Assembly (NCBI RefSeq): GCF_900110765.1
Contig: NZ_FOEO01000006.1
Location: 156,849-216,482 of the forward strand
From: Pseudomonas sp. NFACC02
Lineage (GTDB): Bacteria; Pseudomonadota; Gammaproteobacteria; Pseudomonadales; Pseudomonadaceae
DNA: 59,634 nt
Direction of reading: 5' to 3'
The number at the start of each line of letters is the position of its first letter. Within the stretch, counting starts at the first letter, position 1. This document shows positions 1,534 to 14,333 of this stretch, one piece after another. The notes under the pieces were generated by a model. That model was not told the origin of the DNA. It saw nothing but the letters and a program-made list of their open reading frames with translations, and ran no database searches. The position numbers and the translations under genes are program-made.

Positions 1534-1664
1534 GCAACGGGGCGGCACTACTCGGTCAATGCCGCCGGTCTGCGAGTGCCTGCAGGTCGGCGCATCTAGT
1601 GCTAATTTGCCTACCAATATCGTTTTGATACCACTGGCAAGCCGCTGTGCAGAGATTTTCGCTT

Positions 1665-3470
1665 ATGCCCGATAGCGCTCCAATTCCCCTGAATGAGGCC
1701 TCGCGGTTATCCCGCATCACGCACATGGGGCTTCTCGATTCAGCTGCTGACGAAGTACTGGATCATATCGTCGACATGGTGGCTCATTACTATGAGTTGC
1801 CCATCGCGCTGGTGTCCATTGTCAGTGAACACCGGCAATGGTTTCGCGCGGGCACCGGGCTCGATGAGCGTGAAACACCTCGGGAAATCTCCTTCTGCGC
1901 TTACTCCATCCTTGGCCACGAAGTGTTTCAGGTGCCGGACGCGAAGCTCGACACGCGCTTCAAAGACAATCCGCTGGTCCTGGGCGAACCGCACATTCGA
2001 TTCTATGCCGGGGTGCCGCTGATCACCGCCGATGGGCTGGCCTTGGGCACGCTTTGCATCATCGACACCAAACCTCGACCGCCGTTGGACTCACGCGACC
2101 TCACCATGCTGGAAATGTACGGCGAGTTGGTGATGAAGCGGCTCAACAACATGCGCAAGGCCAGTTATGTCGATCAACCGACAGGGTTGTTCAATCGCCT
2201 GCGCCTGGAGGAAGACATCCTGGCGCTGGCCGATCGCGACGACCATGCACTGGTCGCGCTGGACATGGTCAATCCGGTGTTCCTCGACAGCATCATCAAA
2301 GCACTCGGCTACAGCTTCGCCCAAGACCTGGTGCGGTGCATGATCGATAGCTGTCGCGAGCAACTACCGGCCGATACGGCTTTGTACAAGGTGAGTCCGA
2401 CGCGCATCGCGCTGCTGACCCGGCACACTGGCCCGGAACAGGCAGAGCAGCTGTTTCGCAGGTTGATCAAACATTTTCAACGGCCACTGGTCTGCCGCAA
2501 CATCCCGATCCAGATGGACGTTGGCATCGGGGTGCTGCCGCTGGGATTGGGGCGTTGTGATGAAAAAGACTGGATTCGTCTGGTGGTCAGTGCCGCCGAT
2601 GAAGCCCGGGGGAAGGCGACCGGCTGGCGATGGTACGAGCCGCATCTGGACTTTGCACAGCAACGCGCCTTCTTGTTGTTGGCGTCGCTGGCCGACGCCG
2701 TCCGCAGCCCGGATCAGCTGTCGCTGGTGTTCCAGCCCAGGCTCGAAGTCGCGACCGGTCGCATCGTCACCGTCGAAGCGCTCCTGCGTTGGCAGCATCC
2801 GGTGCTGGGGCCTATCAGCCCGGCCGAGTTCATTCCATTGGCGGAAAAGACCGCGCTGATTCGCTCGCTGAGCCTGTGGGTGTTGCGCAACGCCGTGGAA
2901 CAGGCACGGAACTGGCAGCGCCAGGGATATGCGTTCAAGGTGGCCATGAACGTCTCCGCCATCGACCTCGCCAACTCACAGTTCAGCGACGCGCTGTTCG
3001 AGCAATTGGCGATCAGTGGGCTCGATCCGGGACGCTTCGAGCTCGAATTTACCGAAAGCGCGCTCTGTGATAACCCCGACGTGACCCGGATGCAACTTGA
3101 GCGCCTGCGTGCGCTGAACATCGACATCGCCATCGATGATTTCGGGACCGGCTACAGCAACTGGACCTACCTGCGCCAATTGCCAGCCACCACCGTCAAG
3201 CTCGACAAGTCGCTGGTGGAAAATCTGGACGCCAACGAAAAGGATCGGCGGCTGGTCGAAGCCATCGTCGACCTGGCAAGGCGGCTGGGCTATCGCGTCG
3301 TCGCGGAAGGGGCGGAGACCGAGGATGTCTACGAGATCCTCTGTCAGTTGGGCTGTCACGAGGTGCAGGGCTACCTTATCGCCCGGCCGATGAACGTCAG
3401 CGCCCTGGAGCACTGGATGAATGGCGAACGCAGCAACAAGGTCAAGCAGCTGCGAGCCTTGGGGCGCTGA
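1665..3470 (+). CDS. GAF / degenerate GGDEF / EAL cyclic-di-GMP signalling protein
   Basis: A soluble protein of about 601 residues that turns over or senses cyclic di-GMP. An N-terminal GAF domain covers roughly residues 15-165. A GGDEF-fold domain follows, but its active-site loop reads SPTRI where GGDEF is expected, so it should not synthesise c-di-GMP. The EAL domain (about 340-590) keeps its key motifs: EALLRW, MNVSAIDL, FELEFTESAL, IDDFGTGYS, VAEGAE and QGYLIARPM. It is therefore probably an active phosphodiesterase with a GAF sensor. No membrane segments are seen. The start is uncertain: an in-frame GTG at 1647 would add six residues, and neither start has a strong ribosome-binding site. 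Confidence 0.85.
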   Translation: MPDSAPIPLNEASRLSRITHMGLLDSAADEVLDHIVDMVAHYYELPIALVSIVSEHRQWFRAGTGLDERETPREISFCAYSILGHEVFQVPDAKLDTRFKDNPLVLGEPHIRFYAGVPLITADGLALGTLCIIDTKPRPPLDSRDLTMLEMYGELVMKRLNNMRKASYVDQPTGLFNRLRLEEDILALADRDDHALVALDMVNPVFLDSIIKALGYSFAQDLVRCMIDSCREQLPADTALYKVSPTRIALLTRHTGPEQAEQLFRRLIKHFQRPLVCRNIPIQMDVGIGVLPLGLGRCDEKDWIRLVVSAADEARGKATGWRWYEPHLDFAQQRAFLLLASLADAVRSPDQLSLVFQPRLEVATGRIVTVEALLRWQHPVLGPISPAEFIPLAEKTALIRSLSLWVLRNAVEQARNWQRQGYAFKVAMNVSAIDLANSQFSDALFEQLAISGLDPGRFELEFTESALCDNPDVTRMQLERLRALNIDIAIDDFGTGYSNWTYLRQLPATTVKLDKSLVENLDANEKDRRLVEAIVDLARRLGYRVVAEGAETEDVYEILCQLGCHEVQGYLIARPMNVSALEHWMNGERSNKVKQLRALGR

Positions 3471-3488
3471 GGGCTTGGCGTCATCATC

Positions 3489-3989
3489 TTAGAACAGCTT
3501 AAACACCATGCGGCGCTCGAACCCCGACAACACCCGGTCGGCGTCGCCGTCGTCCTGCCAGCCGAGGCTTCGGTACAGCGCATGGGCTGTCGTGTTCCCG
3601 AGATCGACCGCCAGCATGAGTTGCCGGGTGTCAGGCCAGAGTTCGCGGACCAGATCCGGTAAGCGCTCCAGACAGGTTTTTCCCAGCCCCAGCCCTTGAT
3701 AACGCCGATCGATCATCAAGCCGTGCAGACTGACGGTCTGACCGTTTGCCCAACGCGGCAGCAGCGATCTGCGCTTGAGCAGAAAAAAGCCACGGGCAAC
3801 GTCATCGATCAGCAGGGCATAGCCCTGAATGTCAGACGCCGGTCGCGCCGTTAGCGCATGCACGGCCCCATACGCATCGCCGACCAGGGTTTTCTGTTCA
3901 TCCAGCAATTCGATCTCCAGCACCTGCTGGCGCTGTACTGCCGACAGCGTTTCGTATTTTTCCAGAATACTGTTCATGAGCGCCACCAT
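3489..3989 (-). CDS. GNAT-family N-acetyltransferase
   Basis: The 166-residue protein has the GNAT core: the acetyl-CoA loop signature RRYQGLGLGKTCLERL (Q/RxxGxG/A type) and a C-terminal NTTAHALYRSLGWQ, the usual strand-helix around the conserved Tyr. It presumably transfers an acetyl group from acetyl-CoA to a small-molecule amine, but the substrate cannot be read from sequence. It is convergent with the EAL gene and divergent from ffs. The start at 3989 has AGGGAC upstream; an internal Met five codons in is an alternative. Confidence 0.85.
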   Translation of the reverse strand: MVALMNSILEKYETLSAVQRQQVLEIELLDEQKTLVGDAYGAVHALTARPASDIQGYALLIDDVARGFFLLKRRSLLPRWANGQTVSLHGLMIDRRYQGLGLGKTCLERLPDLVRELWPDTRQLMLAVDLGNTTAHALYRSLGWQDDGDADRVLSGFERRMVFKLF

Positions 3990-4116
3990 GCCGCGTCCCT
4001 GGCGGTCCTTGCAAGTGGTTGAGCCTTATCAAATTTTTTATCTGCAACCAGAGGTTGTAACTTCGCGCCAGACCGGTACAATGGCGCGGCTCGCCGACTG
4101 GCGAGTGTCGTTATGG

Positions 4117-4222
4117 TGACCCCATCGGTCCCCCCGCAACGATTACCCGTCAACCTGGTCAGGCCCGGAAGGGAGCAGCCACAGCGGGAACATTGTGTGC
4201 CGGGGTGTGGCTGGTGGGGTTG
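4117..4222 (+). ncRNA. ffs: 4.5S RNA (bacterial small signal recognition particle RNA)
   Basis: The apical part is diagnostic of SRP RNA: CCTGGTCAGGCCCGGAAGGG, then AGCAGCC, and GTGTGCCGGGGTGTGGCTGG on the return strand. The terminal stem pairs ACCCCATC (4119-4126) with GGTGGGGT (4213-4220). The RNA binds Ffh to form the particle that targets nascent inner-membrane proteins. The exact mature ends are not visible from sequence alone. In many pseudomonads ffs lies just upstream of dnaX; here it is followed by accessory genes. Confidence 0.95.
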
Positions 4223-4641
4223 CCTCCTATCTCCAAGGTCCTTGATCTTACAAGGATATCTCGCTCAAAAATCTCGAAGTGTGGCAGCGTTTAGGGATAC
4301 CTAAATAGTGCGCTTTGCCGACGATCAAAGCTTTCCACGCTCTTGCGTTCCAAGTGCTTCGACCGGTGTGCCCTCACCATTCCTTACCCCCCTGAAATGC
4401 TTTCCCTGACGCAAGCTGGAAGCATGTGACGTCTACGCTTGGGTGGAGTTATCGTTGAGCCCTCATTGGTCTGGCAGGGGAGCTGGCATAAAAGAGTACG
4501 TATTTGGTCGGCGGTGGTATTGACACTTTCAAGGACTTTTTTGCTTGCGAAAGCAGGCCGTTGGACAGCTCTAGTCTCGTAGAACGCTTGACAGGAAAAC
4601 ACCACCCGAACATTGAATTAACAGAATCAAAGATTGCTCCG
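4223..4641. other. Gene-free AT-richer tract behind ffs
   Basis: This stretch has a weak stem TCCTTG-N6-CAAGGA (4239-4256) just after ffs. Otherwise it holds only short frames lacking ribosome-binding sites or recognisable motifs. I saw no integrase gene and no clear direct repeat that would mark an attachment site. It appears to be the left junction of the accessory block. Confidence 0.5.
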
Positions 4642-5319
4642 TTACTTTGCTGCCAAGAGCCTGGATGCGCTGTTCAAAATGATCTCCATCTCGAAATCGA
4701 GTTGCTCTACGCTGTAGGTATTTACGCCTAACTCTATGATTCTATGGAGGTTTTCATATTGAGTTGCGGCAAGCTTGTCGAGAGCACCCCTTAACGCAAT
4801 CGGGCGCGACTGGGACTTGTTATTCCTGTACGTCAAGATGTCACGAGCATGGCCCAGGCAAACTGTGGAAAGCATGGTGACGAGCCGTACTGAATCCTCA
4901 TCGGAGAAACCCGCCTCTTTTAGTTTGGCAAATAACGCTTCCACAGGGTCAAGTGAGATCATTGTGAGCGGATCGCCGAACCAAATATGCTCAGCAAACG
5001 CGCCGAGACTGATAATGCCACTCACAAATGTTTCTGCATATGCCTTCAATGCCGACTGCCAATCAACAGCCTCTGCAACACCGAGCCCTGAAAAGTGGCC
5101 GTTGAACGCTTCAATAGCCAATAACTGAAAGAGGGACTTTCGATCCTTTACATAATAGCTTAAGGCTTTTCTGTCGACCTTCAACTTAAGCGCGAGTGCG
5201 CTTAGGGACAGATCTTCCGGCCTAAAACTTCTGGCCGCTTCAAGAATTTGTTCCAGGTCCAAGCCTGCGCGCTGCCCCTGGGCTCTAGGCGAGGTGATTA
5301 GCTCATCTTTTGACTTCAA
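4642..5319 (-). CDS. TetR/AcrR-family transcriptional regulator
   Basis: The 225-residue protein has an N-terminal TetR helix-turn-helix (about residues 20-70; LSLSALALKLKVDRKALSYYVKDRKSL). The C-terminal ligand-binding region is all-helical and not specific enough to predict a ligand. The start is a TTG at 5319, supported by a strong AGGAG six bases upstream. The gene is divergent from the MpaB-oxygenase operon across a 302-bp gap that contains an 18-bp perfect palindrome, so it probably controls that operon and itself. Its GC content is lower than that of the flanking core genes. Confidence 0.85.
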   Translation of the reverse strand: MKSKDELITSPRAQGQRAGLDLEQILEAARSFRPEDLSLSALALKLKVDRKALSYYVKDRKSLFQLLAIEAFNGHFSGLGVAEAVDWQSALKAYAETFVSGIISLGAFAEHIWFGDPLTMISLDPVEALFAKLKEAGFSDEDSVRLVTMLSTVCLGHARDILTYRNNKSQSRPIALRGALDKLAATQYENLHRIIELGVNTYSVEQLDFEMEIILNSASRLLAAK

Positions 5320-5545
5320 CTGTTTCTCCTGACCGTGCCGATGCGATGATTAAGGCTTCGGTGACGGGATAAAACATAGGGTTATAGCACAGACCCCACT
5401 GCGTCGATCCAAGGTTTGAGGGTATATTTTTTTCATACTTCTCGAAAAAAATCTAGCGCACCTACGGCGTGGCCTTGAAGCCTCACTTAGAGCGATCCCA
5501 AGCAATTTTTTTTGCTGTCTCGTGCAAAATCCGACGAGCGTGATC

Positions 5546-5600
5546 TTGACACGGCTGTTTTTCCAGGAGTAGCGTTCGCTCATATTCCCACGTGGGAATA
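5546..5600 (+). promoter_or_regulatory. Candidate promoter and TetR operator of the oxygenase operon
   Basis: TATTCCCACGTGGGAATA at 5583-5600 is a perfect 18-bp palindrome about 20 bases before the oxygenase start codon. Upstream lies TTGACA (5546-5551), a consensus -35; a -10 at about 5570 is poor. If that promoter is used, the palindrome would overlap the start site, a typical repressor position. The link to the divergent TetR gene is inferred. Confidence 0.5.
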
Positions 5601-5621
5601 AGAACAAAAAAGGAGATCGTG

Positions 5622-6716
5622 ATGTCATCCGATAACACAGCCGAAGCGAGTACACGCCAGCCTAACAGGGTAGTGAGCCGAGAACGCCTGCTTGGACAAG
5701 AGTCCCGCTGGAGGCGCCACGGTGAGCCGACGCCTGCAGGCACCGGCGAGGTGATTGACCATGGCGTGTTTGGTCCAGGTTCTGTCGCTTGGGAAGTCCT
5801 GCTGCATCCCGCGACGATCGTGTTCCAATCTGCCGCCCAATTCGTACTACAGCTCACCTACAAACCGATTTTTGCAGGTGTACGGGATTGGGATCCCATC
5901 TCGAAAAAAGCGGGGAAAGGGACACTGACCCTTTTTGACATGTTCGATCGTGCCCAAAGGAATTCCGGCATCCACGCCCCCATGTGGTTGGGTGACAAGG
6001 CAACCGCGCAACGCGTTGCGAAGCACCTGATGAACATCCATGCGAAGGTAGCCGGAGACGTTGTCGATCCGGGTAATCCTGAGCTTGGGGGCTACGCAGC
6101 AAACTCGCCGCGAGAATCGATGTGGGCAGTGCTTACAGAAATGCACTCCATGCTCTGGCTCTACGAGTCGCTGGCGTTCCGTGGCGCAAGGCTTCCGAGA
6201 AAGCTGAGCGCGGCAACGCGTGATCAGTTCATCGCAGAAGTGGCAGAATATGCGCGATTGTTCCCGGCTGCGGAGGAAAATCTGCCGAGTAATATGGCCG
6301 AATTGCGTAAGCTCTATGAGCGTGACGCAGCGCTGTTCGGTGGATCCGACACGATCATGACTATTCCCGAAACCGGGAAGAACTGGCACCACATCGTGCA
6401 GGCGTCCATCGAAAACAACTATCACCCTTCGCAGTTCAAAGTTAAAGTTCAAATGTTTTTCCAGAACAAGTTATTCCGAATGCCAGTGTTGGCGTCTGTG
6501 TCTGGAAAAACCCGCGAGTCGATGGGTATCAGCAAAAAGGCAAGCAGAAAGATTTTCTTGTACCGCGCGCTTATGCTTCCTGTTATCTGGTTCTTGCAAC
6601 AACCATGCTGTGAGCGTTACTTCATGAGAATGATGTGGGGGCCAGACGCCGTCAAGTTGATCAAGTCTGCGCGCGAACTTCATGCCCAGGCTATGAAAGG
6701 GCGTGTCATACGGTAG
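5622..6716 (+). CDS. MpaB-family oxygenase (DUF2236, latex-clearing-protein-like fold)
   Basis: A 364-residue protein with the family signature near the N-terminus (GVFGPGSVAWEVLLHPATIV, about residues 46-65), followed by an all-helical core. Members (MpaB, latex-clearing protein Lcp) bind haem b or act on alkenyl/isoprenoid chains, and Lcp cleaves C=C bonds to carbonyl products. The substrate here is unknown. The start at 5622 has a strong AAAGGAG; an upstream in-frame codon at 5592 lies inside the palindrome and is less likely. It is first in a run with aldehyde dehydrogenase, porin and ferredoxin genes, which suggests its product is an aldehyde. Fold assignment is fairly sure; chemistry is inferred. 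Confidence 0.75.
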   Translation: MSSDNTAEASTRQPNRVVSRERLLGQESRWRRHGEPTPAGTGEVIDHGVFGPGSVAWEVLLHPATIVFQSAAQFVLQLTYKPIFAGVRDWDPISKKAGKGTLTLFDMFDRAQRNSGIHAPMWLGDKATAQRVAKHLMNIHAKVAGDVVDPGNPELGGYAANSPRESMWAVLTEMHSMLWLYESLAFRGARLPRKLSAATRDQFIAEVAEYARLFPAAEENLPSNMAELRKLYERDAALFGGSDTIMTIPETGKNWHHIVQASIENNYHPSQFKVKVQMFFQNKLFRMPVLASVSGKTRESMGISKKASRKIFLYRALMLPVIWFLQQPCCERYFMRMMWGPDAVKLIKSARELHAQAMKGRVIR

Positions 6717-6722
6717 TAAAGA

Positions 6723-6734
6723 AGCGTTCGCTCA
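6723..6734 (+). promoter_or_regulatory. 12-bp direct repeat shared by two leaders
   Basis: AGCGTTCGCTCA occurs at 6723-6734, upstream of the aldehyde dehydrogenase gene, and again at 5571-5582, next to the 18-bp palindrome upstream of the oxygenase. A 12-mer recurring 1.15 kb apart in two leaders may be chance or a shared regulatory element. Confidence 0.25.
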
Positions 6735-6788
6735 CTTCAATAACAATACTGAACGGCACCGTCAGGCACGTTCTGAGAGAAACTGGAT

Positions 6789-8192
6789 ATGTCATTTCGA
6801 CTACTGATCAATGGAGATCTCATTGAGACCTCCACGTCCATTAACGTCTTCAATCCGGCAACCGGCCAGGTATTGGAGACGTGTGCGAAGGCAACTATCG
6901 AACATGCTGACCATGCAGTTGATGCGGCTGATAAAGCATTTCCCGGCTGGTCCTCGGCAGGATACGAGTACCGTTCAAAATGCCTTCATGCCGCCGCAGA
7001 TGCAGTTGAGAGTCGTCGTTCCGATTTCTCCAGGCTGCTTACGCAGGAGCAGGGGAAGCCGTTGCATCAGGCATTGCAAGAAGTGGACGGTGCGGTGGCG
7101 AGCCTCCGCTACTATGCGGGCATGTCTCTTCCACTGAAGAAGATGCACGACAGCGACACTGCGCTGATTTATGAACAGCGTTCTCCACTTGGGGTGGTAG
7201 TGGCTATCACGCCTTGGAATTTTCCTCTGTTGTTGCTGATGATGAAGCTGGCGCCTGCTCTGATTGCCGGCAACACGGTGATCGCCAAACCCTCTCCGCA
7301 AACTCCGCTAACCACGGCGTTGCTCGGAGAGGTTATCGGCCAGATGTTTCCAAAAGGTGTGGTGAACGTATTATTGGATGAGAACGATCTGGGCCCGTAT
7401 CTTACGTCCCATCCGAAGGTTGCGAAGATCAGCTTTACCGGCTCAACCCAGACCGGAAGAAGGGTCATGATCAGCGCTGCGGGTACTTTGAAGCGTTTGA
7501 CACTGGAGCTCGGCGGTAACGACGCAGCGATTGTTCTAGACGACGCCGATATCAATCAGATTGCACCCAGCTTGTTCTGGGCATCGATGTTCAATTCTGG
7601 CCAGGTCTGCCTCGCAACGAAGCGGATTTATGTCCATGAATCGCTATACGACAAAGCGTGCGAGCTTTTGGCGAATTTATGTGATGAGGCGGTAGTGGGC
7701 AACGGTCTGGATGCGGGTGTTCAAATTGGGCCCGTCCAGAACAAAGCGCAATTCGAAAAGCTGCGAGACCTCATCGAAGACTGTCGCCAGCATGGGCACG
7801 TCATCGCTGGCGGACAGGCGGTAGGGAATGAAGGCTACTTCATCAAGCCAACCCTTGTGACCGGATTGGGCAGCCAGTCCCGACTCGTTTGCGAGGAGCA
7901 ATTTGGTCCCATCATTCCAATCATCAGCTTTCGAGACATCGATGACGCGATCCGACAAGTCAATAACAGTGACTACGGGCTCGGCGGTTGTGTCTGGACG
8001 TCCTCGATAGAGCGCGGACTGGAAGTCGCTACCAGGATCGAGACAGGTACTGTTTGGGTCAATAAATACCTGGACATGCCTTTGGATATTTCCTTTGGCG
8101 GAACTAAACAGTCTGGAATAGGAAAAGAACAGGGGCTGGATGGACTATTGGAGTATACGAAAAGCAAAAACATCAACATTTCGAAAGTCTGA
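6789..8192 (+). CDS. NAD(P)-dependent aldehyde dehydrogenase
   Basis: A 467-residue ALDH-superfamily enzyme that oxidises an aldehyde to its carboxylic acid. All catalytic elements are present: Asn144 (TPWNF), Glu240 (LELGG) and the nucleophile Cys274 (GQVCLATKR), plus the cofactor-loop FTGST at 216-220. Length and motifs resemble the succinate-semialdehyde/aromatic-aldehyde branch, but the substrate cannot be fixed. It follows the MpaB oxygenase by 72 bp on the same strand and probably takes its aldehyde product. Codon use is more AT-rich than in the core genes. Confidence 0.92.
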   Translation: MSFRLLINGDLIETSTSINVFNPATGQVLETCAKATIEHADHAVDAADKAFPGWSSAGYEYRSKCLHAAADAVESRRSDFSRLLTQEQGKPLHQALQEVDGAVASLRYYAGMSLPLKKMHDSDTALIYEQRSPLGVVVAITPWNFPLLLLMMKLAPALIAGNTVIAKPSPQTPLTTALLGEVIGQMFPKGVVNVLLDENDLGPYLTSHPKVAKISFTGSTQTGRRVMISAAGTLKRLTLELGGNDAAIVLDDADINQIAPSLFWASMFNSGQVCLATKRIYVHESLYDKACELLANLCDEAVVGNGLDAGVQIGPVQNKAQFEKLRDLIEDCRQHGHVIAGGQAVGNEGYFIKPTLVTGLGSQSRLVCEEQFGPIIPIISFRDIDDAIRQVNNSDYGLGGCVWTSSIERGLEVATRIETGTVWVNKYLDMPLDISFGGTKQSGIGKEQGLDGLLEYTKSKNINISKV

Positions 8193-8261
8193 GTTTGAAT
8201 GCCCCTCCCTGGTGAGGAAAACAAAAATAATAAAATCTCATCGATTGAATTAGGCCGCATA

Positions 8262-8273
8262 GACTGATCAGTC
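8262..8273. promoter_or_regulatory. 12-bp perfect palindrome GACTGATCAGTC before the porin gene
   Basis: The palindrome lies in the 114-bp gap between the aldehyde dehydrogenase and the porin, preceded by an A/T-rich stretch (8219-8240). It could be an operator for separate control of the porin, or part of a secondary promoter. No regulator can be assigned. Confidence 0.35.
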
Positions 8274-8306
8274 GACGAGCTTAGCTTGCATTGCCGGAGA
8301 AGCAAA

Positions 8307-9725
8307 ATGGCTAACTTGTTATATTTAGTTGGGAACCGTCGCGTGCGTAACGTCCTGGAAGGGTGCACTTTCGTCAGCGCTGCAACGGCGATGCTGATTG
8401 CATCCACAGTGGCACAGGCTGATTATAAAGACCTGGTGGCAGTAAAAACTGAAGGTCCAAACGATACATTACCTCTGGCGGCACCCGCGCCGGCACCTAC
8501 ATCCTTAGATAAGCTGAAGGCACTCAATCATTATCAAGAGCAAGGCACTCTCATCAAGGTACCGGGGGTACAGGACACAGTCCTTGGAGATTACAACGGC
8601 TTCCGGTCGAGCCTGGCGGAGCATGGATTTGGCTTGGTGATCACAAGTCTTAACAATTTCGCATACGACCTTGGAAGCCCTCCGAGTGCCCATCCTCAAA
8701 GGTACAACGGGCAGGACCTGACGGCGACTGGCCTGGAGCAAGTCATGCTGACCTATGATCTGGGTTCTTCCGGCAAAGATCAAAAGCAGCTGATTGGTGC
8801 TGTCGTCTCGTCGCTAGCCAGTTGGGAACCCTTGGGACCTCGTACGCATGCGTCGATCAGTCGCCTGGCTTACTATCAATCGTTCAACGACAAACAAGTC
8901 GAGATGAAAGTAGGTTATTTGAGTAATGCGCTCGAATTCATTGGTATCTACACAGGTGGATCTTTAGCAGGCGGTACGCAAGGCCCCAGTGCAATCATTC
9001 CTTTCCAGTTAGGGTTGAGCCGCCTTCCTATGGCGTCGCCAGGCTTGAACCTCACCTTTAATGGTGATAGCGGACTGTACGATAAGGTGGGCGTTCAGCG
9101 CAGTATCAGCCCGTACGGCGCTCAAGAAGAGGTGGAAACCGACTCCCACGGCTTGCGCTGGCGCACGAAAGGCGGGGACCCGCTCGTCATCAATGAGTTG
9201 GGCTACAAGCGCGAGGCCAAGCCAGGATCCAAGTACATTTGGGTGCGCGGTGGGTTTATTTACAACACCTCCGACTATCAGAAGTACACGGGAAATGAAG
9301 AAAGCGATGATAACCATGCACTGTTTCTGGCAGGGGACGTGCAGGTATCAACTCCGGAAGGAGGGTTGCCGTTTCAAGGCTGGTATGTCGGGGGTACGAC
9401 GTATCAGGCGCCGGGAGATCGAAATTTGTACGATAAATATTTCGAAGCCAGGACCTATAAGATCGGAACATTCAAGTCGCGACCTTTTGACATGCTGTCG
9501 CTCACGGTCAACTACAACGATTTCAGCGACGATGCCCGACGCCATTATGGGAATTTAGGCGTGGAAACCGAAGGGCTCACCAGTTCCATTACCGCGTCCT
9601 ACATGGCGCGGCTCTACCCTGGTGTTTACCTGAGCACTGGCCTGAGTCGAACACGCAACCCCGCATTTACTCCGAAAATGGACGATGCTTACAATCTCCT
9701 GGTTGGGCTTAACCTCTTCTTTTGA
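8307..9725 (+). CDS. OprB-family outer-membrane porin
   Basis: A 472-residue precursor. The N-terminus is basic then hydrophobic (about residues 15-38) and ends AQA-DYKDL, a plausible signal-peptidase site. The mature part shows OprB/carbohydrate-porin features: GDYNGFRSSLAEHGF near the start, many alternating aromatic strands, and a terminal LLVGLNLFF with C-terminal Phe, as in outer-membrane barrels. Despite the family name, members take up varied small solutes. The start at 8307 is chosen for GGAG at 8296; an earlier in-frame Met at 8286 lacks a site. It probably admits the substrate of the neighbouring oxygenase and dehydrogenase. Confidence 0.85.
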   Translation: MANLLYLVGNRRVRNVLEGCTFVSAATAMLIASTVAQADYKDLVAVKTEGPNDTLPLAAPAPAPTSLDKLKALNHYQEQGTLIKVPGVQDTVLGDYNGFRSSLAEHGFGLVITSLNNFAYDLGSPPSAHPQRYNGQDLTATGLEQVMLTYDLGSSGKDQKQLIGAVVSSLASWEPLGPRTHASISRLAYYQSFNDKQVEMKVGYLSNALEFIGIYTGGSLAGGTQGPSAIIPFQLGLSRLPMASPGLNLTFNGDSGLYDKVGVQRSISPYGAQEEVETDSHGLRWRTKGGDPLVINELGYKREAKPGSKYIWVRGGFIYNTSDYQKYTGNEESDDNHALFLAGDVQVSTPEGGLPFQGWYVGGTTYQAPGDRNLYDKYFEARTYKIGTFKSRPFDMLSLTVNYNDFSDDARRHYGNLGVETEGLTSSITASYMARLYPGVYLSTGLSRTRNPAFTPKMDDAYNLLVGLNLFF

Positions 9726-9737
9726 AGGTGTAAATCT

Positions 9738-9926
9738 ATGCGACTCAAGATCGATCAATCACTTTGCGTCGGCGGCAGCGCTTGCGTTAATAAAAATCCG
9801 ACTCGGTTCTCGTTGGATGACGATAACGTGGCAGTTGTTTCAGAGCAGCCCATTCTCGAGAGTGAGATCCCGCTGCTGAAAGAGATTGTTGATGATTGTC
9901 CGATGCAGGCTATCTCGCTGATATAA
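9738..9926 (+). CDS. Small [3Fe-4S] ferredoxin of the P450-partner type
   Basis: The 62-residue protein has Cys10, Cys16 (CVGGSAC, C-x2-G-x2-C) and Cys54 (DDCP). Gly replaces the second cysteine of the usual C-x2-C-x2-C, the pattern of single-cluster [3Fe-4S] ferredoxins that feed cytochromes P450. No P450 or ferredoxin reductase lies in the window. The gene starts 12 bp after the porin stop with GAAGGTG upstream, so it is in the same operon. It may deliver electrons to the haem-type MpaB oxygenase or to an oxygenase elsewhere. Confidence 0.88.
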   Translation: MRLKIDQSLCVGGSACVNKNPTRFSLDDDNVAVVSEQPILESEIPLLKEIVDDCPMQAISLI

Positions 9927-9990
9927 AGCACAAGTTTTGCTGGAATGTGCAGTGCCTGCAGCTCTGGTTCACACCTGTGTGAGGTGAACA

Positions 9991-10170
9991 GTGAATAGGG
10001 TTTCAATGATTATCAAATTAACGGGAGGGCTGATTGGCTGTCTAGCTTTAGGATGGGTGATGATCGTGCTTGCGACGGTCATCGCCCTGGATCTCAGCGG
10101 AGTTAATGCCGCCGGCGGTGGGCTCGAAAAGGCTAAAGCGGCACCACCCGAAAGCAGTGAAAAAGGCTGA
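9991..10170 (+). CDS. Small single-span membrane protein
   Basis: A short frame of 59 codons from GTG 9991 (GAGGTGA just upstream) or 54 from ATG 10006 (AGGG upstream). It has one hydrophobic helix (GLIGCLALGWVMIVLATVIAL) followed by a Lys/Glu/Pro-rich tail. It lies between the ferredoxin and the multispan membrane protein on the same strand. I do not recognise a family. The stable frame, two usable ribosome-binding sites and a clean membrane helix argue that it is real. It may be a small subunit for the protein downstream. Confidence 0.55.
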   Translation: MNRVSMIIKLTGGLIGCLALGWVMIVLATVIALDLSGVNAAGGGLEKAKAAPPESSEKG

Positions 10171-10237
10171 TAAGTCTGTCGTTTTAATGCCCAGCGGCAT
10201 AGCGATAAAAAACCATAAAAATAAAAAGGTGATTTAA

Positions 10238-10753
10238 ATGTCAAACGCTCCTACTGGAAATTCTCGTATATTTCGCGATTCAGCGATCATTGTTGCCTGG
10301 ATTATTTTTGTCGCAATGGTAGGCCTGAAACTTGGATTCAGGGAGCTCTGGGCTCCCTTCTTCTGCGCGATCATGTTCAGCGTTGAAAATAAGGACAAGG
10401 CAAAAATTCCGGGGATTATCTTAGGTGCGGTGTCTGGCGTCTGGTTGGCATGGGGGATAGTCGTTAGCATTGGATTAAGTACGCCGTTTTTCGGCGCTTT
10501 TTGGGCCACGGCCGTAGTGTTGTTTTTTGGGGTCTATTTGATTTTTTGCGGTGGAGTCTTCATGCCACTGCTGATTAATAAGTCTACTTTTGTGTATCTG
10601 ACCGTTGCGCTTGCCACTCATGTTTCAGCGCCTCCATTAGAGGCGACAAGCCTGATACTTGTTGGGGGAACACTGTTGCTGATTGGCGAGGTTGCGATTC
10701 TAGCGGTTCTACACGGGTCGAACGCATCCCTTTCTAATCATAGATTGGAGTAA
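10238..10753 (+). CDS. Multispan inner-membrane protein, possibly DUF1097/YcdZ-like
   Basis: The 171-residue protein has about five hydrophobic segments (near residues 16-34, 37-50, 59-80, 86-112 and 120-160) and little soluble sequence. A good site (AAGGTGATTTAA) precedes the ATG. Size and topology resemble DUF1097 (YcdZ) proteins, but I cannot confirm this by eye. As last gene of the oxygenase cluster it could export or import a pathway metabolite. Base composition is AT-rich like the rest of the block. Confidence 0.6.
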   Translation: MSNAPTGNSRIFRDSAIIVAWIIFVAMVGLKLGFRELWAPFFCAIMFSVENKDKAKIPGIILGAVSGVWLAWGIVVSIGLSTPFFGAFWATAVVLFFGVYLIFCGGVFMPLLINKSTFVYLTVALATHVSAPPLEATSLILVGGTLLLIGEVAILAVLHGSNASLSNHRLE

Positions 10754-11605
10754 ATCCGATCATACGGGGGACACGTGAACGCATCGTCATTCCGCAGAAT
10801 TGCTGGGGAAAGGAACTCTGCGATGGCGAAGCGTTACGAACTTGCGATCGAGGTCTGGAGAGCGGCCTCGCCTGAACGAACGGCTGGCATGCTTTTTTCA
10901 ATCAGTTGGGCGGGCTTATCAGCAGTGACAGGTGCTGTCTCGCGGTCGCGCCAGCCGTAAACCTTTCGAACGTCTTTGCCTGAATCTCTGCCAGTACTGT
11001 TTCGTCAAGTACGCAGTTGCATTGGCCCCAGGCTGCTCCCGGAACGCGATCACCAGCACTGCGGCCAGGCGAGAGTTGAAAACTTCCCTTTATTCCGGGG
11101 GCAGCATGGCCTTGGCCAACGCTTTGATTTTTGTATATTCGCTTGCGCTCTCGGACACCCCGCTCAGGTTACGGTAATGGCAACCGATGTTTCCGTTGCC
11201 TGAAATCCAGACAATGAACTTGGAAAATCTTGAAACCACCGTTCTGGGCGCGGATTTTAAATCTATTGCAGATTTTAGAGAGAGAAGGGCGTCGTCAATT
11301 TTTTCCTTGTTTCGACTTTTTAATATAACGTGCAGCACTGAAAGTATTAGCCCGTCAAGATCCGTTGTGGGGATTCTCATGAACTTTTTATTGATGATGC
11401 TGATCAGCAGGGTGGCGGCGGGGCACACCCTTAGTCGATTGAACTGCGCCTGGGGCGCTTGTTAGACCGGGTAACGGGTCGATGCGGATCGGTTCGAGCT
11501 TAGTCAGCCCTTGGGTGAACGACGTAAGATGGGAATGGGTGGCAAGCTGCTGCCGCAGTCACGATCTACAAATCATCACTGCGGCGTATCCACGCGTCTG
11601 CCTCC
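10754..11605. other. Decayed tract with no convincing intact gene
   Basis: Short overlapping frames on both strands show mixed composition and no consistent coding pattern. A frame at 11090-11428 on the minus strand (112 codons, GTG start) and one at 10932-11177 on the plus strand have protein-like patches, but neither has a good ribosome-binding site or a recognised motif. I read it as gene debris at the right edge of the accessory block. Confidence 0.5.
10823..10960 (+). pseudogene. Possible remnant of an IS5-type transposase N-terminus
   Basis: The frame opens MAKRYEL followed a few residues later by a Trp, and it has a ribosome-binding site (GGGAAAGGAAC). This resembles the first residues of many IS5-family transposases (M-x-R/K-R-Y-E-L-S-D-x-x-W). 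The similarity is lost after about 15 codons and the frame soon stops. It could equally be coincidence. Confidence 0.25.
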
Positions 11606-11818
11606 CTACATCATCGGAAGACAGCGTGCTCTATCGCTCGCGAACTGTTTCCCTCGCGCGGTGCGCTCTGCGACCACGCATCCATCCCTGATAGACACAG
11701 ATGCGTAGCCCATATCCCTGAGATAAAGCAAGGCAGTGAAATCCAGCGGGTTGATCCTGGAAGGCGCTCCATCCGTGAGCGTTTGAAGAAGTCGAATGGC
11801 CAAGGATTCCAGCCGCAT
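11606..11818 (-). CDS. Small hypothetical protein
   Basis: A 70-residue frame with GAGG eight bases before the ATG. The sequence (MRLESLAIRLLQTLTDGAP, then a Tyr/Leu-rich stretch) looks protein-like and may form a small helical fold reminiscent of winged-helix DNA-binding proteins. I do not recognise a family. It lies between the decayed tract and dmeR. Confidence 0.45.
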   Translation of the reverse strand: MRLESLAIRLLQTLTDGAPSRINPLDFTALLYLRDMGYASVSIRDGCVVAERTARGKQFASDRARCLPMM

Positions 11819-11950
11819 AGGGCATGCCTCAGGAGGTGATTGGGATAGTGGCTATTTGTCACCTAGGGGCATGGGGAGTTCCATTTATTTGTGCCTTCGA
11901 TTAAGGCCGCCTTGTGCATGTCGGCGGATCGGCCCATCATGCCGCCCAAT

Positions 11951-11972
11951 ATAGGTAGGGGGGGTATGGTAT
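11951..11972 (+). promoter_or_regulatory. CsoR/RcnR-type operator overlapping the dmeR ribosome-binding site
   Basis: A G7 tract is flanked by AT-rich half-sites (ATAGGTA-G7-TATGGTAT), the layout of operators bound by RcnR/DmeR repressors. It ends on the dmeR start codon, and the G-tract is also the only Shine-Dalgarno candidate. Repressor binding here would block transcription of dmeR-dmeF. Confidence 0.6.
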
Positions 11973-12246
11973 GGCGCATTTGCATGCCGAGAAGGACGAT
12001 TTGCTCAAGCGCGTGAGGCGTATTGCGGGGCAGGTGCAGGCCATCGAACGCGGGTTGGAGACCGACACCGATTGCGCCAAGACCCTGCATCTCGTGGCCG
12101 CTACCCGTGGTGCGATCAATGGCTTGCTTGATCAGATCATCGAAGCCCACGCGCGCGAGCATGTGGCTCATCCTGATTTGAGTGATGAGGACCGGGCACA
12201 AGGCCTTGAAGATTTGCTCGAAGCGATTCGTCGCTATTCAAAATAA
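11971..12246 (+). CDS. dmeR: DmeR/RcnR-type metal-sensing repressor (CsoR family)
   Basis: A 91-residue all-helical DUF156/CsoR-family repressor. The metal-site residues match RcnR: His3, Cys35, His60 and His64, the set that binds Co(II)/Ni(II). A Cu-sensing CsoR would instead show a C-H-C pattern. The core helix LLKRVRRIAGQVQAIERGLE is typical of the family. dmeF follows 26 bp later on the same strand, so metal binding probably releases a common operator at 11951-11972. A formaldehyde sensor (FrmR) is less likely given the neighbour. Confidence 0.88.
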   Translation: MAHLHAEKDDLLKRVRRIAGQVQAIERGLETDTDCAKTLHLVAATRGAINGLLDQIIEAHAREHVAHPDLSDEDRAQGLEDLLEAIRRYSK

Positions 12247-12272
12247 GTCGTCTGGCGATACACGGAGGCCCT

Positions 12273-13241
12273 ATGGCCCTTGCGCAGAAACACACCCATG
12301 AACATGTCTTTCTCGGTCAGTCCCACGACGAGAACGCCCGCCGTACGTTATGGGTGGTCGTGCTGACTTTCGTGATGATGGTCGGGGAGATTGCCGCGGG
12401 TTACGTCACGGGCTCGATGGCGCTGCTGGCGGACGGTTTTCACATGGCAACCCATGCCGGGGCGTTAGGCATCGCGGCGGCGGCCTATTCGTTTGCCCGA
12501 CGCAACGCCAATAACGCTCGCTTCAGTTTCGGCACGGGCAAGGTGGGCGATCTGGCGGGGTTCGCGTCGGCGCTGATTCTGATGATGGTTGCGCTGGGTA
12601 TCGGTATCGAGTCGCTGATGCGCCTGTTTCAACCGACGCAGGTGGCGTTTGGGGAAGCCACCTTGATTGCGGTGGCAGGGCTACTGGTCAATATCGTGAG
12701 CGCATTCATGCTGTCCGGCGGACACGGGCACGGACATCACGATCACCACGGGCACCCTCATCATGGGCATCACCCGCACACAGAAAACGACCATCACGCT
12801 CACGGAAAACATCATGCTCACGACGGTGACAACAACCTGCGCTCGGCTTATGTACATGTACTGGCCGACGCACTGACTTCGGTGCTGGCGATCGGCGCGC
12901 TGCTGGCAGGACGTTACCTGGGCTGGGTCTGGCTCGACCCTGTGATGGGGATCGTCGGTGCGGTGGTGATCGCCAAGTGGTCGGTGGGTTTGATCAGGCA
13001 GAGTGCCAACGTGTTGCTGGACGTCACCGATGAACACGTCGCGCAAGAGATTCGCGATGTGCTCGAAGCGGATGACAAGGTGCAGATCACCGATCTGCAT
13101 GTGTGGAAGGTCGGCCCGGATGCCCGTGCGGCGATTGTCAGTGTGCTGGCAAAAGTCGACGTAACGGCGCAAGAGGTTCGCGACCGTCTCAGTGCCGTGC
13201 ACAAGGTGTCGCACCTGACCATCGAGTGTCGAACAGCCTGA
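12273..13241 (+). CDS. dmeF: Cation-diffusion-facilitator efflux pump DmeF (Co/Ni)
   Basis: A 322-residue CDF transporter that exports divalent metal against protons across the inner membrane. Six membrane helices are visible. The metal-site motifs are LLADGFHM (about residues 50-57) and HVLADALTSV (about 197-206). A very His-rich loop (about 150-185) separates helices IV and V, and a C-terminal ferredoxin-like domain follows (about 245-322). A His-rich CDF next to a DmeR repressor is the arrangement known for cobalt/nickel resistance in rhizobia. Zinc transport cannot be excluded from sequence. Confidence 0.9.
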   Translation: MALAQKHTHEHVFLGQSHDENARRTLWVVVLTFVMMVGEIAAGYVTGSMALLADGFHMATHAGALGIAAAAYSFARRNANNARFSFGTGKVGDLAGFASALILMMVALGIGIESLMRLFQPTQVAFGEATLIAVAGLLVNIVSAFMLSGGHGHGHHDHHGHPHHGHHPHTENDHHAHGKHHAHDGDNNLRSAYVHVLADALTSVLAIGALLAGRYLGWVWLDPVMGIVGAVVIAKWSVGLIRQSANVLLDVTDEHVAQEIRDVLEADDKVQITDLHVWKVGPDARAAIVSVLAKVDVTAQEVRDRLSAVHKVSHLTIECRTA

Positions 13242-13406
13242 GCGGCTGCTTCCTGCTGAATCGTACCCAGCGCTTTCCCACGCGCGGATTCGGCGCCGAA
13301 TTCGCCAATATTGCGTGTCAAATCAAAGAAATCTGCCCCGTTTTTGGGGCAATACGATAGTCTTCGCACCATTGTCGACACGGACACCTGGATTGGAAGG
13401 CTATAG

Positions 13407-14333
13407 ATGGCGCCTGATGACTATCTCGTAATGACCAGCAAGGAATGGGCGGGGCTGCGCGCCAGTACGCCACTGACCTTGTCCGAAGAAGATCTGTCGG
13501 CGTTGCGAGGCGTAAACGAAGATATTTCCCTGGAAGATGTCGTCAACATCTACCTTCCGCTGTCGCGCCTGATCAATCTGCACGTCAGTGCCGCGCGCAA
13601 TCTGGCGAGCATCAAGGACACCTTCCTGGGGCGTCCGGCGAAAAAACAGACCTATGTCGTGGCGGTTGCGGGCAGTGTGGCGGTCGGCAAAAGCACCTTT
13701 GCTCGTGTTCTGCAGGCGCTGATGGCGCGCTGGCCTGATCATCCGCGGGTCGATCTGGTGACCACCGACGGTTTCCTGCATCCGAACGCCAGGCTGGATG
13801 CGGACGGCATCATGCACCGCAAGGGCTTTCCGGAAAGCTACGATCGCAAGCGCATGGTCAAGTTTCTCTCGGACCTCAAGGCAGGCATTCCCGTGATCAG
13901 TGCGCCGGTCTATTCGCACATCAGCTACGACATCGTGCCGGACACATTCATCGAGATCAGCCAGCCGGACATCCTGATTTTCGAAGGCCTGAACGTGCTG
14001 CAGACCGAGGGCAATGACGGCCAGAAACCGGGCAGCATCGTGTCGGATTTCTTCGACTTCTCGATCTACCTGGATGCGGCAGAAGGCGACATCGAGCGCT
14101 GGTACGTTGAGCGCTTCCTCATGCTGCAACGCACTGCATTTCGTGCTCGCGGTGCTTATTTTCGTGAACTGGCCGACCTGCCGCCTGAAAAATCCCCGGA
14201 CGCCGCGCGCAAGATCTGGCGCGACATCAACCGTCCCAACCTGCTGGAAAACATCTTGCCCACCCGTGAGCGCGCGAGCCTGGTGGTGCGCAAGGCATCG
14301 GATCATTCGGTGAAAGAGCTGTGGCTGCGCTGA
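13407..14333 (+). CDS. coaA: Type I pantothenate kinase
   Basis: A 308-residue enzyme phosphorylating pantothenate with ATP, the first step of coenzyme A synthesis. The P-loop GSVAVGKST lies at 89-97. Other CoaA landmarks are TTDGFLHPN, KGFPESYD, PVYSHISYDIVPD, DILIFEGLNVLQ and the C-terminal NILPTRERASL. Length is close to E. coli CoaA (316). GGAAGG precedes the ATG. Pseudomonads usually rely on the type III enzyme CoaX, so a type I copy here may be a second isozyme or an acquisition. The next gene overlaps its end by 13 bp. Confidence 0.93.
   Translation: MAPDDYLVMTSKEWAGLRASTPLTLSEEDLSALRGVNEDISLEDVVNIYLPLSRLINLHVSAARNLASIKDTFLGRPAKKQTYVVAVAGSVAVGKSTFARVLQALMARWPDHPRVDLVTTDGFLHPNARLDADGIMHRKGFPESYDRKRMVKFLSDLKAGIPVISAPVYSHISYDIVPDTFIEISQPDILIFEGLNVLQTEGNDGQKPGSIVSDFFDFSIYLDAAEGDIERWYVERFLMLQRTAFRARGAYFRELADLPPEKSPDAARKIWRDINRPNLLENILPTRERASLVVRKASDHSVKELWLR

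What the first reader, a model, noticed from the sequence alone, without database searches (positions are those of the whole stretch)
4642..10753. Uncharacterised oxygenase-aldehyde dehydrogenase-porin-ferredoxin cluster
Seen: TetR divergent from DUF2236/MpaB oxygenase, ALDH, OprB-type porin, [3Fe-4S] ferredoxin, a 54-59-residue membrane peptide and a five-helix membrane protein, all co-directional, with short gaps and AT-richer composition than the flanks. Known: MpaB/Lcp relatives cleave alkenyl chains to carbonyls and ALDHs oxidise aldehydes. Inference: an uptake-cleavage-oxidation route for a hydrophobic, perhaps isoprenoid or alkenyl, compound. I know of no named pathway with this set.
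Basis: partly seen in the sequence, partly recalled or inferred. Interest (0 to 1): 0.75.

Follow-up and report, generated by a model that had tools for sequence, protein, structure and literature searches.

The report
Repressor-controlled MpaB oxygenase catabolic island
A 7.4-kb DNA block in a likely pseudomonad genome, missing from a relative with the same flanks, carries genes for a TetR-type repressor, a predicted haem oxygenase of the MpaB family, an aldehyde dehydrogenase, a porin and a ferredoxin, which would likely take up an unknown alkene-bearing compound, cut its double bond and oxidise the product to an acid; the repressor-oxygenase pair, with one shared DNA palindrome that is its likely switch, recurs in distantly related bacteria and makes an untested enzyme group easy to find.

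Summary
The genes are as described. The block is probably a horizontally acquired island: one relative (L219) has the same flanks without window 4228-11660, GC is 51.5% against 60%, and the oxygenase was found in 1 of 398 sampled genomes of the genus. The neighbourhood check proposed for Pseudomonas therefore fails, but the core recurs elsewhere. In 20 related loci from Proteobacteria and Actinobacteria, a TetR gene of the same type is divergent from the oxygenase in 17, and an 18-bp palindrome (TATTCCC-N4-GGGAATA and variants), found in this work, lies just before the oxygenase in 14, all among those 17. Searching by palindrome alone found two further TetR-oxygenase loci, along with three sites that are not at one. 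ALDH genes of three subfamilies follow the oxygenase in 7 of 20 loci, OprB-type porins in 3. The ferredoxin, 59-residue peptide and DUF1097-like protein are not conserved with it. The oxygenase model resembles latex clearing protein and a t-anethole oxygenase; it keeps the predicted haem histidine but forms a separate clade with Asn where classical members have Thr. Two related oxygenases of one lineage are followed by a [2Fe-2S] reductase. Most likely a C=C-cleaving, alkene-to-acid route; substrate unknown.

The parts
4123..4219 (+). Bacterial small SRP RNA gene (ffs), left border of the extra segment
   Evidence: Rfam RF00169, 77.1 bits; alignment with relative L219 ends at window 4227
4228..11660 (.). 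Extra 7.4-kb segment, low GC, probable island
   Evidence: L219 aligns to window 3415-3992, 4012-4227 and 11661-14329 with 268 bp between the last two blocks; GC 51.5% against 60%
4642..5319 (-). TetR-type repressor, divergent from the oxygenase (TTG start)
   Evidence: Distant relative of tetracycline repressors in the PDB, best E 3.1e-8; orthologue in the same place in 17 of 20 loci
5583..5600 (.). Predicted operator, TATTCCCACGTGGGAATA, 21 bp before the oxygenase start
   Evidence: Conserved palindrome in 14 of 20 loci; only site in the window within 3 mismatches and only site in the own genome within 1 mismatch
5622..6716 (+). DUF2236/MpaB-family oxygenase, 364 aa, predicted b-haem enzyme (H140 as proximal ligand, R110, R113-N114)
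6789..8192 (+). Aldehyde dehydrogenase, 467 aa, Cys274 of GQVC and Glu240 of ELGG present
   Evidence: PF00171; best NCBIfam match PRK13473 below its cut-off; 54% to the ALDH beside the Thalassospira oxygenase L014; motif places, motif roles recalled
8307..9725 (+). OprB-type outer-membrane porin, 472 aa
   Evidence: PF04966; 16-strand model, mean pLDDT 81.3; best PDB match P. putida OprB 4gey, E 9e-22
9738..9926 (+). Small ferredoxin, predicted [3Fe-4S] (C10, C16, C54 only)
   Evidence: PF13370; alignment to 1rof; cysteine count
9991..10170 (+). 59-residue peptide with one hydrophobic segment, role unknown
   Evidence: No family over a cut-off; hydropathy
10238..10753 (+). 171-residue membrane protein; one relative is named DUF1097
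   Evidence: 7 relatives, one named DUF1097 by UniRef; in 3 of 398 sampled genomes of the family, own included

Best explanation
A 7.4-kb segment beside the SRP-RNA gene of a likely pseudomonad genome, absent from a relative with the same flanks, encodes a TetR-type repressor, a DUF2236/MpaB-family protein predicted to be a haem oxygenase, an aldehyde dehydrogenase, a porin and a ferredoxin, which would likely admit a small alkene-bearing compound, cut its C=C bond with O2 and oxidise the resulting aldehyde to an acid. Shown here: gene content, the extra segment, and conservation of the divergent repressor-oxygenase pair with one palindrome between them. Predicted: the repressor sits on that palindrome, 21 bp before the oxygenase start, and lets go when it binds the substrate or a product. 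Predicted: the porin passes the compound through the outer membrane. Predicted: the oxygenase holds a b-type haem through H140 and cleaves the alkene. Inferred from reductases beside two relatives of one lineage: electrons reach it through an iron-sulphur partner, here the [3Fe-4S] ferredoxin with a host reductase, so it would work more like a P450 system than like latex clearing protein, which I recall as needing no external reductant. Inferred: the ALDH removes the aldehyde. The substrate is unknown; an aryl-alkene of the phenylpropene type is my first guess, an isoprenoid the second. The last two small genes may be passengers.
Confidence: 0.5

Rival explanations
1. The core is a detoxification switch, not a growth pathway: TetR senses a toxic unsaturated compound (a plant phenolic, an antibiotic or a reactive lipid), the oxygenase destroys it and the ALDH clears the aldehyde; porin and ferredoxin are incidental.
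For: TetR and oxygenase stand without a detected ALDH in many relatives, and the palindrome is the only one within 1 mismatch in 9 of the 11 genomes that have one; the repressor is closest to drug-sensing TetR proteins in the PDB; a Tet(X)-like monooxygenase lies 0.7 kb downstream in L007 and an MFS transporter follows the ALDH in L019.
Against: A linked porin suggests uptake, which a pure detoxification unit does not need. The Tet(X)-like match is far under its cut-off (155 of 750 bits).
Confidence: 0.27
2. The oxygenase is a redox-partner-fed monooxygenase or dehydrogenating enzyme that hydroxylates or desaturates its substrate instead of cutting a C=C bond; the ALDH acts on an alcohol-derived aldehyde made elsewhere.
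For: [2Fe-2S] reductase directly after MpaB in L209 and L056 and a [3Fe-4S] ferredoxin in the window; Thr to Asn change in the motif; clade separated from two classical copies at 100/100, on long branches.
Against: Three ALDH subfamilies next to the oxygenase fit an enzyme whose direct product is an aldehyde; a characterised MpaB-family member is reported to cleave C=C bonds (PMC12724181, passages).
Confidence: 0.15
3. The seven genes are a chance pile-up in an island: only the TetR-oxygenase pair is a unit and the rest have unrelated roles.
For: Ferredoxin, peptide and 171-residue protein have no match in the 20 loci; the two relatives of the 171-residue protein whose surroundings were fetched lie away from any MpaB.
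Against: ALDH downstream of the oxygenase in 7 of 20 loci with none in 307 kb of other flank and the porin linked in several lineages exceed chance; genes in the window are close and co-directional.
Confidence: 0.08

Closest known systems
[quoted passage not shown] whole text of PMC6940283), and the S. maltophilia t-anethole oxygenase structure 8s1j
   Different: No sequence match to any PDB chain up to E 10; the JYR-1 papers, as far as read, describe no such repressor, operator, porin or ferredoxin; JYR-1 TAO was described as a self-sufficient flavoprotein, whereas this clade shows haem-type motif residues; the JYR-1 sequence was not examined here
Latex clearing protein Lcp (5o1m, 5o1l; PMC5522427, one passage read)
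   Different: No hydrophobic N-terminal segment by hydropathy, so no sign of secretion; Asn instead of Thr; linked to TetR, ALDH, porin and redox genes
Nro1 of Gordonia sp. J1A (PMC12724181; first of four parts and passages read)
   Same: Bacterial MpaB-family protein with a b-haem-type spectrum that gives aldehydes or ketones
   Different: 323 residues as the paper states, rubber substrate; its sequence was not compared with this clade
Fungal MpaB of mycophenolic acid biosynthesis (as described in PMC12724181)
   Same: Named in the same Pfam family; reported to cleave a terminal prenyl C=C
   Different: Biosynthetic; sequence not compared here

Membership tests
MpaB/Lcp oxygenase family (PF09995) | Profile match over the curated cut-off | tested here: met
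   76.3 bits against 23, residues 57-248; a classical copy in the own genome reaches 232.6
MpaB/Lcp oxygenase family (PF09995) | Shared fold | tested here: met
MpaB/Lcp oxygenase family (PF09995) | Active-site Arg and proximal His | tested here: met
   R110 and H140 align with the classical R and H and are invariant in 55 sequences; roles taken from one passage of PMC5522427; Lcp itself was not in the alignment
MpaB/Lcp oxygenase family (PF09995) | Thr next to the Arg motif (RxxRT) | tested here: not met
   N114 instead of Thr, invariant in 55 sequences; one of three classical rows (L059) also lacks the Thr, and Nro1 is said to have Arg there, so this feature is not universal in the family
MpaB/Lcp oxygenase family (PF09995) | b-type haem and C=C cleavage | not testable with these tools
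   Needs purified protein
trans-anethole oxygenase type pathway | Oxygenase sequence related to TAO | tested here: inconclusive
   No match to any PDB sequence up to E 10, a set that should hold 8s1j though this was not checked; fold match only; JYR-1 TAO sequence not examined
trans-anethole oxygenase type pathway | Aldehyde dehydrogenase in the cluster | tested here: met
   6789-8192; 7 of 20 relatives
TetR (TetR_C_1) repressors | Family profile | tested here: inconclusive
   TetR_C_1 20.9 bits, 0.1 under the cut-off; PDB tetracycline repressors at E 3.1e-8
TetR (TetR_C_1) repressors | Repressor gene divergent from its target with a palindromic operator between, bound by the repressor | tested here: inconclusive
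   Arrangement met: 17 of 20 divergent, 14 with the palindrome; DNA binding untested
P450-type ferredoxins ([3Fe-4S]) | Three cluster cysteines, second replaced | tested here: met
   C10, C16, C54, Gly for Cys in the alignment to 1rof; cluster type itself not tested
OprB porins | Profile and fold | tested here: met
   45.9 bits against 22.9; 4gey E 9e-22, TM 0.68

The most novel reading that the evidence does not exclude
A distinct clade of MpaB-fold haem oxygenases, spread by horizontal transfer across Proteobacteria and Actinobacteria with its own repressor and operator, is fed electrons by iron-sulphur partners and forms the first step of an undescribed alkene-to-acid catabolic pathway; the operator alone can be used to find its members and their partner genes.
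Probability: 0.35. Interest if true: 0.72.

Novelty: new variant of a known kind. Interest (0 to 1): 0.56.

Why it matters
Searches for DUF2236 and for 'oxygenase MpaB family' in the held library listed 12 and 2 papers; by their titles and abstract starts none describes this clade, its repressor or its operator, and the two of them that I opened in part concern rubber oxygenases (PMC12724181, PMC5522427). Most subscription papers are not held, Purwani et al. 2024 on bacterial haem C=C-cleaving oxygenases among them. Enzymes that cut C=C bonds with O2 are wanted as replacements for ozonolysis. The conserved palindrome gives a direct genomic handle: it points to the regulator, to the inducer screen that would name the substrate, and to partner genes, so an unassigned enzyme group becomes testable.

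Tried and rejected
Genus-wide neighbourhood conservation: oxygenase in 1 of 398 sampled genomes, the own one; in the family of the Stenotrophomonas relative 1 of 297 sampled, again only the centre. The 171-residue protein as a marker: 1 of 249 and 3 of 398, the other two without any of the other six genes in the fetched stretches (L051, L052). Plasmids: closest MpaB 56.8% over 61% of the query in Tistrella and 43% over 97% in B. plantarii; no plasmid covers 80% of the block as DNA, and the 20 listed of 79 matches all lie in the ALDH gene; no phage match; no relative in viral contigs. Foldseek gave no significant match for the oxygenase; only VIA-align did. Sequence search of the PDB with the oxygenase alignments: nothing, with the larger one up to E 10. 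The second MpaB copy of the own genome is of the classical type; its PDB search gave two weak, unrelated-looking matches. Direct repeats at the island ends: none convincing. Promoter and terminator scan: no more than shuffles. Palindromes not at MpaB: two sites with one mismatch (G409 C10, G407 C15) and three of the six exact sites (two in G1343, one in G1138). L002 has TetR but no such palindrome; L016 has a version one core letter off, not counted; in L021 the TetR and MpaB matches begin at residues 104 and 134 with no gap between them, so the region between the genes is missing and cannot be judged. A weak ALDH match in L008 (E 2e-4, 34 residues) was left out of the count. ALDHs too distant from the window's would be missed.

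Rows dropped: one search lists the best 120 of 249 proteins; 54 of those plus the window were aligned for the model. The tree used 19 of 20 loci (L021 left out), 8 database proteins, 2 MpaB2 proteins, 2 classical copies and the window; the tool warns that the classical rows are long branches and that their join may be false. L015's ALDH was not classified.
Full report
OBSERVATION. The seven reported genes are in place. The porin start is better placed at 8307, where an ATG follows a ribosome-binding-like GGAGAAG, than at the mechanical 8286. The oxygenase start at 5622 follows AAGGAG. The region is low in GC, 51.5% against 60.2% left and 60.3% right.

ISLAND. The bacterial SRP RNA gene ends at 4219. 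Eleven relatives, fetched by the gene pair right of the block with up to 1.5 kb of flank, were compared with the window. One, L219 (genome G085), has the same left flank (window 3415-3992 at 68%, 4012-4227 at 95%) and right flank (11661-14329 at 81%), with 268 bp in place of window 4228-11660. The other ten align on the right only. So the cluster arrived as a 7.4-kb block beside the SRP RNA gene, or was lost in G085; the low GC and the absence of the oxygenase from the other 397 of 398 sampled genus genomes favour arrival.

THE CONSERVED CORE. The oxygenase has relatives of up to 74% identity; source names include Sphingomonas, Stenotrophomonas, Mycobacterium, Tistrella, Thalassospira and Streptomyces. 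Twenty loci were fetched from species genomes with titles. By tblastn a TetR of the window's type is divergent from the oxygenase in 17 of 20; the other three are L011, L012 (by eye a different TetR-like ORF sits there) and L020. Between the two genes lies an 18-bp palindrome: TATTCCC-N4-GGGAATA in L003, L004, L006, L007, L009, L010, L013, L014 and the window, one end letter off in L008, and variants AAATCCC..GGGATTT (L005, L019), TGTTCCC..GGGAACA (L015), AGTTCCC..GGGAACT (L017, L018). That is 14 of 20 loci: 14 of the 17 with that TetR, one of which (L021) lacks the region between the genes, and 0 of the 3 without. It ends between 33 bp before and 1 bp inside the estimated oxygenase start. The window holds one site within three mismatches, where shuffles give 0.83 on average, so the window count alone proves nothing; the weight comes from the comparison.

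TESTS OF THE PALINDROME. Nineteen genomes were searched within one mismatch: 11 have a site, 13 sites in all, 11 of them at an MpaB gene, including all 10 exact ones; the reversed control pattern hit in 1 of 19 (sites placed, two of them, in G408 and G411, by being the only site of their genome). Henriciella (G414) has two exact sites; the second precedes a second MpaB gene only 42.5% identical to the window's. A scan of 385 alphaproteobacterial genomes by pattern alone found 6 exact sites in 5 genomes; G1051 and G1180, not seen before, have a TetR (49%) and an MpaB (62%) there, the third is the centre genome, and three sites in G1343 and G1138 have neither in the fetched stretches. B. plantarii plasmid L056 has the site with one end letter changed, 133 bp before its MpaB; the second Henriciella site is 129 bp before its MpaB; no TetR of this type was found in either stretch.

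PARTNERS. ALDH genes lie in 7 of 20 loci (L005, L014-L019), all on the same strand and starting within 2.3 kb of the oxygenase end; no other ALDH at E 1e-10 occurs in 307 kb of remaining flank, against 59 kb of downstream sequence. If places were random the chance of 7 of 7 is about 3 in a million (my arithmetic), but L015, L017 and L018 are close relatives, so the independent events are fewer. Three ALDH kinds occur: PRK13473-like in the window and L014, benzaldehyde-dehydrogenase (MdlD)-like in L005, L016, L017 and L018, Rv0768-like in L019, all under the curated cut-offs; L015 was not classified. The two Thalassospira relatives differ, L014 with and L006 without ALDH. OprB-type porins follow the oxygenase in L003, L004 and L005; a search of 19 genomes with the porin found 4, three of them these and one elsewhere in its genome at 32%. 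In the tree these porin carriers spread over several branches near the window. Ferredoxin, peptide and 171-residue protein have no match in the 20 loci.

REDOX LINK. In Henriciella L209 and in the B. plantarii plasmid L056 the oxygenase is followed by a 341-residue protein with Fer2 and NAD-binding domains, annotated PDR/VanB oxidoreductase in L056; the two oxygenases are 88% and the two reductases 84% identical, so this is one lineage, not two independent cases. The third member of that branch, L020, and the other 19 loci have no relative of this reductase in the fetched stretch. Together with the window's ferredoxin this suggests, but does not show, that the clade takes electrons from iron-sulphur partners.

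LITERATURE. The passage read of PMC5522427 names Arg164, Thr168 and His198 of Lcp as active-site residues and Lys167 as distal ligand. PMC12724181 (first part and passages) reports a b-haem-type spectrum and aldehyde or ketone formation for the MpaB-family Nro1 and cites Purwani et al. 2024, which I could not read. [quoted passage not shown] putida JYR-1. By titles and abstract starts, no paper in the listings describes this gene set or operator; searches show only 20 of 66 and 20 of 184 papers.

VERDICT. A real, probably mobile, repressor-linked unit around a distinct MpaB clade, with aldehyde oxidation as the best-supported next step. Substrate, haem and operator binding remain to be tested.

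Noticed in passing
G000:C28:1829-2521 (L058): The own genome has a second MpaB/DUF2236 gene, of the classical type (232.6 bits to PF09995), outside the window.
   Followed up: partly
window 11971-13241: By eye, a CsoR/RcnR-like repressor and a His-rich cation-diffusion transporter follow the island; the stretch matches in whole or part in 93 of 199 sampled genus genomes.
   Followed up: no
window 1647-3989: By eye a GGDEF/EAL-like gene and a GNAT-like gene lie between the SRP RNA gene and a gene (324-1490) that in four of 12 relatives compared (L024, L025, L026, L028) stands next to the SRP RNA gene, so this border may be a repeated insertion place.
   Followed up: partly
L007:11796-12962: A flavin monooxygenase weakly like Tet(X) (155 bits, cut-off 750) lies 0.7 kb behind the oxygenase in Sphingomonas zeae.
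   Followed up: no
L051:6516-9784: A relative of the 171-residue protein heads a same-strand run of what look by eye like phosphotransferase and acyl-CoA-dehydrogenase genes that recalls, from memory, the levulinate (lva) operon; a 4-oxo acid would be an expected product of isoprenoid cleavage.
   Followed up: no
L213, L217 (G1343:C122:838-905): Two exact copies of the palindrome 50 bp apart with no MpaB or TetR relative in the fetched stretch.
   Followed up: no
L021:9658-10685: In the Tistrella mobilis plasmid record the TetR and MpaB matches start at residues 104 and 134 and touch, and MpaB matches in two pieces, so the pair looks like a deletion remnant in that record.
   Followed up: partly
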